This document shows positions 12,095 to 26,106 of a DNA stretch of 64,000 nucleotides, piece by piece (the stretch's first letter is position 1; each line of letters opens with the position of its first letter). Both the position numbers and the translations under genes were made by a program. The notes under the pieces were generated by a model. That model was not told the origin of the DNA, ran no database searches, and saw only the letters and a program-made list of their open reading frames with translations. The DNA is from Ralstonia soli (lineage in GTDB: Bacteria; Pseudomonadota; Gammaproteobacteria; Burkholderiales; Burkholderiaceae), in assembly GCF_023955655.1 (NCBI RefSeq), contig NZ_JAMXHT010000003.1, positions 558,001-622,000 of the forward strand. The letters are read 5' to 3'.

Positions 12095-12103
12095 GGTAGT
12101 GAG
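12095..12103 (+). repeat. Left target-site direct repeat of the island
   Basis: The 9 bp ggtagtgag immediately outside the left IS50-like end. They match ggtaaagag at 26098-26106 in 7 of 9 positions, consistent with a decayed 9-bp target duplication. Confidence 0.6.
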
Positions 12104-12430
12104 TATCGGCTTATACGCAACTCTCGGCGCTACCGCCGCCGCGTAAGGCCCGCAAGGTCTTTGCCGCGACATGAACCTCCTTGAGTCCGAGCCCGATGGC
12201 TTTGGCGCCGGGCTCGCCATCGCCCTTACGGCCAAGGAAGCCGCCCAGGCGCGCGATCAAGCGCAGCACTTCGTTGAGCTTGGGCTTGGGTGGCTGCAAG
12301 ACATCTGCGAGCAAATACGCGCCGCGAATCTCTTCGGCGTCGAAGAATAGCGAGACATCCAGATCGGGACAGGTTCGACCCATGCGCATCAGGTGAGCGA
12401 TACGCCAGGCCACCGCCAGGAACAGTGCCG
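12104..12430 (-). pseudogene. IS4-family (IS50/Tn5-like) transposase, C-terminal remnant
   Basis: The minus-strand frame ending at TAA 12111-12113 encodes about 105 residues matching the C-terminus of Tn5-like IS4-family transposases: AVAWRIAHLMRMGRTCPDLD, then LNEVLRLIARLGGFLGRKGD and GEPGAKAIGLGLKEV. The matching frame continues a little upstream of the first ATG (12413) and stops near 12430, where a different gene remnant begins on the other strand. The catalytic D, D and E region is not in this piece. The stop codon overlaps the terminal repeat, as expected when transposase runs to the element's edge. The missing N-terminal part is mirrored by the remnant at 25405-26097 in the same orientation. 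Confidence 0.8.
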
Positions 12431-12553
12431 ATGCACCCCAAGATCATGATGGCCGCCGAGGATTATTACGCACGCAAGGAACTGGCGCCGATCATCGATC
12501 GCCTCGCGCACGCCTGCGAGCGCAACGACCACGATGCGATCGTGACGATATGA
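12431..12553 (+). pseudogene. CapD/WbpM-type UDP-GlcNAc 4,6-dehydratase, C-terminal stub
   Basis: A 40-residue stub starting MHPKIMMAAEDYYARKELAP and ending at TGA 12551-12553. It matches the extreme C-terminus of membrane CapD/WbpM/EpsC-family dehydratases. The intact relative at 28463 in this window has the corresponding HERIMKAREHYVPWTQFAP followed by the same amphipathic end. Nothing of the catalytic domains remains. It abuts the transposase remnant, so the IS junction probably removed the rest of the gene. The 227 bp that follow (12554-12780) show no recognisable gene. Confidence 0.65.
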
Positions 12554-12780
12554 AGGAGTGCGTATCGGGATTCCGCGTGGTGACCGAAATCCAGGACCAC
12601 TTGTATGGTTGGCCGTCGGGGGTCATTGGCGGCCCTGATCGCCCGACGGTAGTTCATTGATAGCGACCGCAGACCGAAGCCACGCATGGGTTACCATTAC
12701 CGGTTTCTCATTTCGGCCGGGTGCGGCGAATACGCCTCGAAGGCGCATTTGCGTCAAACAGCTTCTCGACCAAATTCGAC

Positions 12781-12996
12781 ATGAATAGCCTGATATTGCC
12801 TGTGGTACTGTCTGGCGGCGCCGGAACGCGGCTCTGGCCACTGTCCCGCAAGTCCCTGCCGAAGCAGTTCGTTCCGCTGGTTCCCTCCAGCGGCGGAGTG
12901 CAGAATAAGGACAATCACCGGGTGACCCATGGTCATCGTATCGGACAGTCCTTCCAGCCGCTCCGGGACGTGTTTGCCCCAGCGCTCGGCCGCTAA
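12781..12996 (+). pseudogene. manC: mannose-1-phosphate guanylyltransferase (ManC), N-terminal stub
   Basis: The first 34 codons (to about 12882) match the start of ManC/XanB/AlgA: MNSLILPVVL, the nucleotide-binding loop SGGAGTRLWPLSRK, then KQFVPLV. After that the frame diverges from the family and stops at TAA 12994-12996 after 71 codons, where the real enzyme has about 480. The tail from about 12883 to 13004 is unrelated sequence that was not identified. The stub cannot make GDP-mannose. It lies 8 bp upstream of the island flippase gene. Confidence 0.75.
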
Positions 12997-13004
12997 GGGG
13001 ACGA

Positions 13005-23769: not shown

Positions 23770-24006
23770 TTCCGGTGTAGGGTCATAGGGTCAACTTGCA
23801 CCTCGAGAAGTACTGCAACAGTATAACCATCGGCATATATATGTCTCGGCATGCCTATTATGATTCGATGAACGAGTACCTTATCTGACGGCATCGTATC
23901 GAGCTTTTCGGATGCCCCCCCGAAATCCCTTGCAAAGGACCTCCGGTCAATTCGCTCAAAAATCGGGCAAAAGATGTGCATAAACCGATACGTTCGCCGT
24001 GCCCTG

Positions 24007-25347
24007 TCACGTCGCCGGTGTTTCAACAACCGGAAGCTTTGTCGGCGCCGTTTTTTCAGAACATAAATTCCGATACGTTTTGCGTTGAAGCGAGGCTGCC
24101 ATGAAATGCACGTAAATAGCCACCGGCATTACCTGAACTACGTAACGAGCAAACAAGGTGAATGTGGTGTCGCGAATCGATTGATACGACATGGCGAAAA
24201 GCCATATGTAGACGACGATTTTCATCGGTGTCACGCTCTCACGCAGCAGCCGGTTAACGACAAATGCCGCGACCAGCCCGAGCAGCATGCCGCGCAGCAA
24301 GGCTTCCATCACGCCGAACCCGACAAACGACTCAGTGATGGCACCGAAAGCGAGGCCGCCACCGGCCATCGCAAACTCCGGATAGAACGTGGACACGTAC
24401 CAGACTGAGGGGTCCAGCTTGTCGAACCAGAGAAGCTGCTGCGGAACCACGCGCGCGAGGTCCAGCGTGTAAAGCGGGACGTCGAAGTCGACGACCATCT
24501 GCTTTTGCTTCATGATGTCGAGCGCGTTGATGAAGACGGACGAGAATTCGCCCGACTGGAGGCCCGAGATCGCCGTGGTCTCGGATACGCCACCACGAAT
24601 CTGGCCGGCGAGCAGGAACAGGACGATGCCGACGAGAGTCATCGTCACCCAGGTCGAAGGCTTGAGGCGACGCACCAGAATCATGTAGCAAAGCAGATAG
24701 CTCAAGGCACACAGCGCGGCGCCCGACCGGCTGCCGCCGGCCACGGCCGACTGCGCCAAGATCCCGGCAACCGCGACGATCCACAGGCGATGCCACTTTG
24801 GTGCCTTCGCAATGGTGAAAACCATGAGCGCTAAGAAGAAGGTGAATTGCAATCGTTCTGCGGTGGCGATGAGCTGCTGAAGGATTAGCGGCAGATTGCG
24901 CAACACTGTGTAGCTTTCGATGTACGAAGCCGCGACCGGCACGTTGGCCATGGTTCGCACCGCGAAGTCAGTGAGAAAAACGAAGACCAATCCGTAGCCG
25001 AGGGCCCGGATTTCCTTCACTTCCGGCACACGGATGGTCTCTACGACGACGTGATACCGGCGCGTCAGGCGGTAGACGCAGGCGAAGCCGAGTAGGAACA
25101 GGAAGTAGGCCAGACCGGCGAAGAACACTTGGTCGTCGGTGAACCCGCCGAATTCGTACCGGGTGTCCAATATCTCTCCGATACCTTGCCTGTTCAGGTA
25201 GATGCCGATGAGCGGAAGCCATCCATACAGCAGGACGCAGAACCCCAGAAACACTCCAATGTCCGGAATCGGCGTCGAACGATTCTTACGGCCGATCCAT
25301 AACCCCACCCATGGCAGAGGGAACACCAGGAGCAGCAGTTCTGTCAT
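24007..25347 (-). CDS. wzy: Wzy-type O-antigen polymerase (island)
   Basis: Integral membrane protein of 446 residues with about ten to twelve hydrophobic segments, predicted to polymerise undecaprenyl-linked repeat units in the periplasm. Features include LPWVGLWIGRKNR after the first helix and a large loop with FDVPLYTLDLARVVPQQLL and WYVSTFYPEFAMAGGGLAFG, as in O-antigen polysaccharide polymerases. The ATG at 25347 is preceded by AAGGAGGAAGCCCCA, a strong ribosome binding site, so the longer frame to 25404 is rejected. It is the only polymerase seen in the window. Its upstream DNA is the decayed transposase, so its promoter is not obvious. Wzy assignment rests on topology and context because these proteins diverge strongly. 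Confidence 0.75.
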   Translation of the reverse strand: MTELLLLVFPLPWVGLWIGRKNRSTPIPDIGVFLGFCVLLYGWLPLIGIYLNRQGIGEILDTRYEFGGFTDDQVFFAGLAYFLFLLGFACVYRLTRRYHVVVETIRVPEVKEIRALGYGLVFVFLTDFAVRTMANVPVAASYIESYTVLRNLPLILQQLIATAERLQFTFFLALMVFTIAKAPKWHRLWIVAVAGILAQSAVAGGSRSGAALCALSYLLCYMILVRRLKPSTWVTMTLVGIVLFLLAGQIRGGVSETTAISGLQSGEFSSVFINALDIMKQKQMVVDFDVPLYTLDLARVVPQQLLWFDKLDPSVWYVSTFYPEFAMAGGGLAFGAITESFVGFGVMEALLRGMLLGLVAAFVVNRLLRESVTPMKIVVYIWLFAMSYQSIRDTTFTLFARYVVQVMPVAIYVHFMAASLQRKTYRNLCSEKTAPTKLPVVETPAT

Positions 25348-25404
25348 TGGGGCTTCCTCCTTTACACTTTCGCAAGAACAGGCACGCGATAATACCGCAC
25401 TCAT

Positions 25405-26097
25405 CGCCAGCCAAACCTGGGGTACTTGCTACCGGCTCGAGCACAACTTCGCCGCCCTTGCGGGTGCACGATAATGGGCTGAGCGAATCAGCCAGTCTGC
25501 CGACGTGCCCGATTCCTGGGCGCGCCATCAGCCCAATCATGTCTGCTTCGTGATCCGCGATGTACACCAACCGCGTATGCGGCACGCTCACGGCGCTCCC
25601 CCGCTACGTTCGTACCCTTCGATCCAACGCTGGCTTTCCCTCATATCGCTGCGCGTGCCCTAGACATCCTTCGGCTAGCGTGCCGAAGCACAGTGGTCTT
25701 GCAGGCACAGCACGACCTGATGGGCTGCCATGCGCTGCTTGGTTTGCTGCAGCGCGGCGCCAGAACCGCGCGCCATTCCACCTCGGCGTTGCCGAAGAAG
25801 CGGTATGACGCCATCGCATCACCTCAGCGTCGGCACGCTGGCGGCACACCGGCCCCTGGCTTGGCTGCCAATCGTTTCATCAAAATCCTCGCTCGCTTGT
25901 TCAGGCGCGCCGCCAAGGTCGAGGTCAGCAAATTCGGTCCGCGTCCCTCAGGCCGAGGCCAGGACCGAGGCGTTCACGCAAAAAGCGAGCGCAGACACGA
26001 GTCCTCACGCGCTTGTAAGCCCTGCGCTGTGTCGTTGAAACTCAATGGCTTCTTCCGCTATCCGCTCCGGCGGGGAGGGGTTCTGTATAAGCTGATG
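25405..26097 (-). pseudogene. IS4-family (IS50/Tn5-like) transposase, N-terminal remnant
   Basis: No single long frame, but minus-strand pieces in changing frames match the N-terminal half of Tn5-like transposases in order: TEFADLDLGGA near 25935, RLAAKPGAGV and ASYRFFGNAEVEWRAVLAP near 25800, MAAHQVVLCLQD near 25700 (first catalytic Asp), ESQRWIEGYER near 25620, and PHTRLVYIADHEADMIGLMA near 25560 (second Asp). The segment with the catalytic Glu is gone. Stops and frameshifts show long decay. The right terminal repeat ends at 26097. The whole stretch 25405-26097 has no other gene. It complements the C-terminal remnant at 12104-12430. Confidence 0.75.
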
Positions 26098-26106
26098 GGT
26101 AAAGAG
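26098..26106 (+). repeat. Right target-site direct repeat of the island
   Basis: The 9 bp ggtaaagag just outside the right IS50-like end. They match ggtagtgag at 12095-12103 in 7 of 9 positions. Confidence 0.6.

What the first reader, a model, noticed from the sequence alone, without database searches (positions are those of the whole stretch)
12095..26106. A 14-kb O-antigen cassette with transposon-like ends and 9-bp near-direct repeats
The segment is bounded by an imperfect inverted repeat with a Tn5-like core (cggcttatacgcaa at the left; cagcttatacagaa read inward at the right) and by ggtagtgag / ggtaaagag directly outside, 7 of 9 identical. IS50-group elements make 9-bp duplications. The cargo is a nearly self-sufficient polysaccharide module (flippase, polymerase, transferases, UDP-GalNAcA enzymes, amidotransferase). 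A serotype-switching cluster carried as an IS50-like unit would be an unusual route of O-antigen exchange, which is normally by homologous recombination at flanking genes.
Basis: partly seen in the sequence, partly recalled or inferred. Interest (0 to 1): 0.85.

Follow-up and report, generated by a model that had tools for sequence, protein, structure and literature searches.

The report
O-antigen segment between decayed IS50-like ends
A block of surface-sugar genes very like one found in Pandoraea bacteria sits here exactly between the two broken ends of a Tn5-like jumping element, which suggests that it arrived as a jumping unit long ago and was later trimmed and fixed in place.

Summary
The left end (12104-12429) and right end (about 25427-26097) are opposite termini of one 1.49-kb IS50-subgroup (IS4-family) insertion sequence, in the same orientation. 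The left keeps transposase residues 341-447, the right residues 19-222; the catalytic middle is gone. Intact relatives make perfect 9-bp duplications, which fixes the register: GGTAGTGAG/GGTAAAGAG match 7 of 9 (about 0.0024 for random 9-mers).

The cargo is a Pandoraea-type O-antigen segment whose homology to two Pandoraea genomes starts and stops at the IS remnants. Relative to them it has lost 5.66 kb and 4.03 kb, gained a nested 2.26-kb element, and keeps seven genes under purifying selection. Lost functions wbpM and fnlABC have host copies alongside.

Unequal decay of the two IS remnants favours two IS copies (a composite-transposon relic) over one IS split by the cargo, but does not prove it. 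The empty site could not be tested: no congener searched showed both flanks. IS-linked polysaccharide exchange has precedents; I rate it a new member of a known kind.

The parts
12095..12103 (.). left copy of the presumed 9-bp target duplication, GGTAGTGAG
   Evidence: register fixed by IS relatives
12104..12429 (-). left IS50-subgroup remnant: IS bp 1 to about 326, transposase residues 341-447 (C-terminal dimerisation domain), no indels against L031
   Evidence: PF02281 5.4e-29; 81% DNA to L013; no indel; 80% aa to the L031 transposase
12430..12895 (+). 3' end of wbpM and 5' start of manC, both broken, Pandoraea-type
   Evidence: 83.8-84.2% to G109/G137; junction with the IS read letter by letter; Pandoraea wbpM- and manC-type genes
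12895..12919 (.). scar of a 5.66-kb deletion relative to Pandoraea (rest of manC, gmd, an epimerase, a DegT aminotransferase, most of a glycosyltransferase)
   Evidence: coordinates; Pandoraea genes named by Pfam
13005..14336 (+). Wzx flippase
   Evidence: PF01943; 87-88% aa to Pandoraea, dN/dS 0.07-0.08
14333..15505 (+). GT4 glycosyltransferase
   Evidence: PF00534 (scanned with a longer start); 84% aa, dN/dS 0.08
15531..15753 (+). 3' fragment of an fnlC-like gene left by a 4.03-kb deletion (glycosyltransferase, fnlB-, fnlA-like genes and most of fnlC lost)
   Evidence: coordinates; Pandoraea genes (the fnlA-like gene is placed by its DNA match to window 34927-36009)
15816..17840 (-). AsnB-type amidotransferase
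   Evidence: PF00733, PF13522; 93-94% aa, dN/dS 0.05
17853..18965 (-). GT4 glycosyltransferase
   Evidence: PF00534; 90% aa to Pandoraea
19005..20045 (-). TviC/WbpP-like UDP-GlcNAcA C4-epimerase
   Evidence: NF011728 best hit, below its cut-off; 95% aa to Pandoraea
20164..21450 (-). TviB/WbpO-like UDP-GlcNAc C6-dehydrogenase
   Evidence: TIGR03026 over cut-off, NF011729 best but below cut-off; 95-96% aa
21731..23990 (.). nested element with IS50-like ends and inverted arms of about 120 bp, no IS4-family transposase found, flanked by CGTTCGCTC / CGTTCGCCG (21722-21730, 23991-23999); absent from the same intergenic gap in G109 and G137
22034..23793 (+). IS3-family copy inside the nested element, itself broken by an IS110-type fragment at 22997-23416
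   Evidence: 20-bp perfect inverted repeat; PF13276, PF13683, PF02371
24007..25404 (-). Wzy O-antigen polymerase; in G109/G137 the gene next to coxB
   Evidence: PF14296 2.5e-6, just over its cut-off; 81-82% aa, dN/dS 0.11-0.13; COX2 neighbour
25427..26097 (-). right IS50-subgroup remnant: IS bp about 680-1486, transposase residues 19-222, with a 132-bp deletion and four 1-2-bp deletions against L031
26098..26106 (.). right copy of the presumed 9-bp target duplication, GGTAAAGAG
10973..12052 (+). left flank: GT4 gene, last of an operon shared with congener G009
   Evidence: 77% DNA to G009 over 4500-12048; Pfam
26144..27004 (+). right flank: Wzz-like chain-length gene; homologues in congeners G010, G007, G001 (59, 51, 46% aa)
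   Evidence: PF02706 E 2.6e-4, below cut-off
28463..36865 (-). host O-antigen cluster with wbpM-like, sugar transferase, FnlC-, FnlA- and FnlB-like genes; no Wzx or Wzy among the proteins scanned
   Evidence: congener matches

Best explanation
The segment is the relic of a composite transposon. Two IS50-subgroup copies in the same orientation bracketed the downstream part of a Pandoraea-type O-antigen cluster, and their outer ends moved the whole block into the gap between the GT4 gene and wzz, making a 9-bp duplication. Afterwards the inner sides of both IS copies were deleted, killing mobility, and the cargo was trimmed. It lost sugar-nucleotide genes, of which wbpM and fnlABC have counterparts in the host cluster, but kept flippase, polymerase, two glycosyltransferases, the UDP-GalNAcA enzymes and an amidotransferase. 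It now works as the variable core (Wzx/Wzy plus transferases) of a hybrid O-antigen locus. Shown: IS identity and polarity, the 9-bp match, exact cargo edges, Pandoraea homology, deletions relative to Pandoraea, purifying selection. Inferred: that two IS copies moved together, the direction of transfer, that host copies replaced the lost genes, and the hybrid function.
For: Both remnants are nearest to the same IS copies, L013/L015/L031. In intact copies such as L031 the two pieces lie in this order in a 1486-bp element. IS family features in L031: YREK motif, Tn5-transposase homology 2.9e-23, size, ends and duplication length as in Table 1 of PMC2266710 for subgroup IS50 (passage read). Target match 7 of 9, P 0.0024. 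Cargo homology to Pandoraea begins at 12429/12430 and ends at 25403 (G109) or 25423 (G137), where the IS pieces end and begin. The cargo-wide match occurs in 2 of 32 Pandoraea genomes. Unequal decay points to two copies: codon positions 1+2 changed at 12 of 191 sites (left) against 43 of 296 (right), Fisher P 0.005; indels 0 against 5. In eight other copies compared with L031 the right-hand part is more conserved than the left in 5, less in 2, about equal in 1. Seven genes have dN/dS 0.03-0.13. The sequence just outside the right end looks native: a stretch ACGYTACAAT 5' of wzz is shared with congeners G001, G007 and G010.
Against: Neither IS copy is complete and the pieces do not overlap, so nothing shows directly that there were two. 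Two of nine target positions differ. No empty site and no intact version was found. No IS of this family was found in the G109 and G137 stretches read. Decay statistics rest on short sequences, treat sites as independent and have no tree. The trimming-for-redundancy idea does not cover manC, gmd and the aminotransferase: I did not search the host genome for copies of those.
Confidence: 0.5

Rival explanations
1. A single IS50-type copy landed between GT4 and wzz, making the 9-bp duplication. Later the Pandoraea-type segment entered through it, by recombination with other IS copies or illegitimately, replacing the middle 350 bp of the IS.
For: The pieces are complementary, non-overlapping and in one orientation, as a split IS would be; the 9-bp match is then that of a plain IS insertion.
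Against: Both halves should have decayed for the same time, yet the right half shows more changes at constrained positions and five deletions against none. Entry into the middle of an IS needs an extra event.
Confidence: 0.27
2. Two unrelated insertions of the same IS family near a recombination-prone O-antigen locus were brought to the borders by deletions and homologous exchange; the 9-bp resemblance is chance.
For: The IS family is widespread: 54 of 299 family genomes match the left piece. The locus holds other IS debris and deletions. Unequal ages fit.
Against: A 7-of-9 match in the register fixed by the IS ends has a chance near 0.0024, and the polarity of both ends is the one a single unit would have.
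Confidence: 0.15
3. The cargo came in by ordinary exchange at shared O-antigen genes (wbpM and others) and the IS pieces are later passengers.
For: The cargo's left edge lies in wbpM, a gene type the host also has (28463-30499).
Against: The host wbpM is 16 kb away in the opposite orientation, and both cargo edges coincide with IS remnants instead of with shared genes.
Confidence: 0.08

Closest known systems
Tn5 and other composite transposons of IS50-subgroup elements (IS4 family)
   Same: Transposase family, end consensus, element length, 9-bp duplication; cargo between two outer ends
   Different: Both copies are inner-truncated and direct; in Tn5 they are inverted (recalled); cargo is polysaccharide genes, not resistance; no longer mobile by its own transposase
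Haemophilus influenzae cap locus flanked by IS1016
   Same: Surface-polysaccharide locus bracketed by IS copies; a common variant has a deletion truncating bexA and IS1016 (PMC6535587, passages read)
   Different: IS1016 belongs to another IS family (recalled); capsule, not O-antigen
Vibrio cholerae O139 emergence
   Same: Large O-antigen block exchanged with an IS (IS1358) at one border (PMC9256687, one passage read)
   Different: Described there as homologous recombination at gmhD and IS1358, replacing the old cluster
Xanthomonas oryzae pv. oryzae lps locus
   Same: Variable lps locus attributed to horizontal transfer, with IS elements inside and inverted repeats at the borders (PMC524487, passages read)
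   Different: Border repeats there lie in metB and etfA; the passages do not mention a target duplication
   Same: Same genes in the same order over about 20 kb, 79-85% DNA identity
   Different: Without the two deletions and the nested element; with manC, gmd, aminotransferase and fnl genes; no IS4-family transposase found in the stretches read

Membership tests
IS50 subgroup of the IS4 family (the end sequences) | transposase of Tn5 type with YREK motif | tested here: met
   Met by the intact relative L031: YREK at residue 308 (spacing pattern recalled), Tn5 transposase 2.9e-23, PF02281 and PF14706. The window pieces lack the YREK part; the left piece hits PF02281
IS50 subgroup of the IS4 family (the end sequences) | length 1350-1550 bp and ends CW------Y---CA-A--W- (PMC2266710 Table 1) | tested here: met
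   Nine relatives are 1474-1486 bp. Compared by eye over the first 16 positions: the window right end fits; the left end departs at positions 1 and 14
IS50 subgroup of the IS4 family (the end sequences) | 8-9 bp target duplication | tested here: met
   Perfect 9 bp in 7 of 10 copies with both ends located, 11 tried; 7 of 9 positions in the window
Composite transposon | two copies of one IS flanking unrelated cargo | tested here: inconclusive
   Two non-overlapping pieces of one IS type flank the cargo; two copies are inferred from unequal decay only
Composite transposon | at least one functional transposase | tested here: not met
   Residues 223-340 of the transposase are missing from both pieces; DNA searches with each end found no further copy in the own genome
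Composite transposon | one target duplication outside the outer ends, and an empty site in relatives | tested here: inconclusive
   7 of 9 match; no congener searched showed both flanks (DNA, 15 congeners; protein, five of them)
Wzx/Wzy-dependent O-antigen cluster | flippase, polymerase, glycosyltransferases and sugar-nucleotide genes together | tested here: met
   Pfam and NCBIfam; Wzy only just over its Pfam cut-off
Wzx/Wzy-dependent O-antigen cluster | the product is an O-antigen rather than a capsule | not testable with these tools
   Needs chemical analysis; the position between the phosphomannomutase-type gene and rml genes and the Wzz-like neighbour are suggestive only

The most novel reading that the evidence does not exclude
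A self-moving IS50-type composite carried the serotype-determining core of an O-antigen locus across genera (Pandoraea-like donor to another Burkholderiaceae genus) and inserted it without homology; selection then deleted parts the host already had, producing a chimeric O-antigen pathway split between native and acquired genes.
Probability: 0.35. Interest if true: 0.6.

Novelty: new member of a known kind. Interest (0 to 1): 0.42.

Why it matters
O-antigen exchange is usually explained by homologous recombination at flanking housekeeping genes, which limits it to relatives. This locus is a readable case in which IS ends, a target duplication and exact cargo edges survive, so homology-free transfer between genera and the later trimming of redundant genes can be checked step by step in further genomes.

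Tried and rejected
Empty-site test. Both flanks were searched by DNA in the 16 genus genomes held, the window's own included. GT4-flank homologues lie in G009 and G011. G007 gave a 57-base match to the GT4 flank and a 143-base match to the wzz flank; G010 a 640-base wzz match; G001 a 28-base GT4 match. Checked by protein: G007, G010 and G001 have a Wzz homologue (51, 59, 46% aa), and the glycosyltransferases that match GT4 in G007 and G010 are at 29-32%, so other genes. G009 and G011 have the GT4 gene (80, 63%), and of Wzz G009 has no match and G011 a distant one (27%). So five congeners were checked by protein, ten by DNA only, and none showed both flanks. G002 matches the left operon up to a contig end. 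After GT4, G009 runs into sequence with no match to the window until the rml region. In G001 Wzz follows the phosphomannomutase-type gene directly, then wbpM, so both the left operon and the cargo occupy a gap that is short there; this is not an empty site for the IS because the left flank is missing.

Full copy of the IS in the own genome: DNA searches with each end found only the window's own copy.

Synonymous divergence as a date for the transfer: cargo pS 0.36-0.59 against Pandoraea, but the comparison set of core genes was poor: of 10 window reading frames tried, 5 matched and 3 of those were probably wrong frames (aa identity 46-54%, pS below pN); the other two gave pS 0.50 and 0.62. So I do not claim a recent transfer.

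Cassette on plasmids: the 20.5-kb region has only short matches in PLSDB; the nested element's left arm has none.

Genus of the host: 16S best named plasmid-collection matches are Cupriavidus 96.4% and Burkholderia 92.7%; records near the window may be left out of that collection. Ralstonia is my inference from genome sizes and species number; no call shows it.

Literature: ten searches (one search found nothing). In the titles and abstract openings listed I saw no O-antigen cluster bounded by IS50-subgroup ends; the library lacks most subscription papers.

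Full report
The window is G000:C23:558001-622000, in a 5.73-Mb draft genome of 31 contigs. It belongs to a Burkholderiaceae genus with 16 genomes held, distinct from genus g11. I identify g11 as Pandoraea because a hit at the same coordinates appears in a P. oxalativorans plasmid and in G203, and because the contig carrying the G137 cluster has the length of the P. captiosa contig.

Observation. ORF 12111-12413(-) is the Tn5 transposase dimerisation domain (PF02281, 5.4e-29). 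A search of 299 family genomes with the left piece found relatives in 54 (only two first-look candidates were scored per genome, so this is a lower bound). A full-length copy on a Paraburkholderia fungorum plasmid (L031) matches both the left piece and the right piece, in the same order and strand. Across nine full-length copies the element is 1474-1486 bp. Of 11 copies tried, both ends were found in 10, and 7 of those have perfect 9-bp duplications; L028, L029 and L030 do not. Size, ends and duplication length fit the IS50 subgroup in Table 1 of PMC2266710 (passages read). L031 has the YREK motif and matches Tn5 transposase at 2.9e-23.

Polarity. In transposase coordinates the left piece covers residues 341-447 and the right piece 19-222. 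Both are on the minus strand, so the outer borders of the segment are the two natural termini of the IS. The pieces do not overlap; residues 223-340 are missing. The presumed duplication GGTAGTGAG/GGTAAAGAG matches 7 of 9: 0.0024 of random pairs do as well; 3 of 900 neighbouring registers reach 7.

Unequal decay. Against sites where L013, L015 and L031 agree, the left piece changed at 12 of 191 first and second codon positions, the right piece at 43 of 296 (Fisher P 0.005). Third positions are equal (17 of 69, 28 of 114). The left has no indel, the right five deletions, one of 132 bp. With the stricter five-copy reference set the contrast is in the same direction (7 of 160 and 36 of 253). Amino-acid identity to L031 is 80% on the left and 38-53% in the two main right segments, 59% in a short one, whereas in eight other copies the right-hand part is more conserved in five, less in two (L022, L024; L024 has a broken frame) and about equal in one (L029). 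One IS broken at one moment should not look like this, which is why I favour two copies. The caveats are short sequences and no tree.

Cargo. A search of 398 family genomes with 13005-21460 gave 143 with some match; in the rows listed (the list was cut, and one or two candidates were scored per genome) only G109 and G137 match cargo-wide, the others gene by gene. Among the 15 congeners five (G004, G005, G007, G010, G011) have one match each, E 8e-32 to 3e-54, against 0 for G109 and G137. A search of 32 Pandoraea genomes with 12436-25422 found the cargo-wide match in the same two; five others have only partial matches. Aligned to G109 in one direction, the window reads 12429-12895, 12919-15532, 15531-21655 and 24007-25403 against 7643-8107, 13764-16373, 20402-26532 and 26611-28006. 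With G137 the last block ends at 25423. So the cargo is one collinear piece of about 20.4 kb in Pandoraea, less 5.66 kb and 4.03 kb, plus the nested element. The left edge is exact: IS up to ...AACAGTGCC, then wbpM from GATGCACCCC. The right edge falls in the gap between wzy and coxB of Pandoraea.

What was lost and kept. The missing stretches hold the rest of manC, gmd, an epimerase, a DegT aminotransferase and most of a glycosyltransferase, and then a glycosyltransferase, fnlB- and fnlA-like genes and most of fnlC. The host cluster to the right keeps wbpM-, FnlA-, FnlB- and FnlC-like genes (FnlA scores 625 bits against a cut-off of 730, so the name is by best match). DNA matches to the wbpM-like gene occur in G001, G005, G006 and G010, and to the FnlC- and FnlA-like genes in G005 and G006, among others, so these are likely native. 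Whether manC and gmd functions exist elsewhere in the host was not searched. In the proteins I scanned the right-hand cluster has no Wzx or Wzy; a second Wzx lies in the left operon (9714-10976), and the only Wzy recognised is the cargo's. All seven retained genes have dN/dS 0.03-0.13 against Pandoraea. A hybrid O-antigen pathway is therefore my inference.

Foreign origin. Window DNA outside the O-antigen locus (45000-64000) matches congeners G001 and G009 at 86-88% (one further 70% match in G009) but Pandoraea G109 and G137 only in patches of 67-78%, with one 163-base patch at 85% in each, whereas the cargo matches Pandoraea at 79-85% over kilobases. The distribution is patchy. Direction is inferred from the Pandoraea version lacking the deletions; a third source is possible, and synonymous divergence gives no sign of a recent event.

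Flanks in congeners. By protein, Wzz homologues occur in G010, G007 and G001, and GT4 homologues in G009 and G011, but none of these five has both (G011 has a distant 27% Wzz match). In G001 the Wzz gene directly follows the phosphomannomutase-type gene and precedes wbpM. A stretch ACGYTACAAT 5' of wzz is shared by the window (just outside the right 9-mer) and G001, G007 and G010, so the right flank looks native up to the IS. A single clean copy of the 9-mer was not seen in those upstream stretches; the best matches were 6, 8 and 6 of 9, the 8 in G007 lying well away from the conserved stretch.

Nested element. 21731-23990 has IS50-like ends, inverted arms of about 120 bp (82% identical) and flanks CGTTCGCTC/CGTTCGCCG, again 7 of 9. 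No IS4-family transposase was found in it. It is split by an IS3-family copy with an IS110-type fragment inside, and is absent from the corresponding Pandoraea gap of about 80-115 bp (the gap sequence is too diverged to show the single target copy letter by letter). A search of the own genome with its left part found only itself and its second arm.

Limits. One genome per species is held, so no strain comparison was possible and the empty-site test failed for lack of material. Precedents for IS-linked polysaccharide loci exist: H. influenzae cap/IS1016 (PMC6535587), V. cholerae O139/IS1358 (PMC9256687) and Xanthomonas lps (PMC524487), all read as passages only. Verdict: real, explained in outline, a new member of a known kind, moderately interesting.

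Noticed in passing
21731-23990: Element with IS50-like ends, long inverted arms, 7-of-9 nine-base flanks and no IS4-family transposase found, carrying a nested IS3 copy that is itself broken by an IS110-type fragment.
   Followed up: partly
27434-28297: IS3-type transposase gene (rve domains) between wzz and the host wbpM; 273 bases of this region recur at 99% at G000:C28:23957-24229.
   Followed up: no
6097-12052: Left operon with its own Wzx and polyprenyl sugar transferase, shared with G009 and, as far as its contig goes, G002 (77-79%), with no Wzy recognised: possibly a second polysaccharide. In G001 there is no room for it between the phosphomannomutase-type gene and wzz.
   Followed up: partly
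37174-38451: A second TviB-like UDP-GlcNAc dehydrogenase in the host cluster, over the NCBIfam cut-off, so this activity may be duplicated by the cargo gene at 20164-21450.
   Followed up: no
L092 (G000:C12:160000-179999): Another locus in the same genome (C12:170022-171712) matches the cargo's amidotransferase region at 65%.
   Followed up: no
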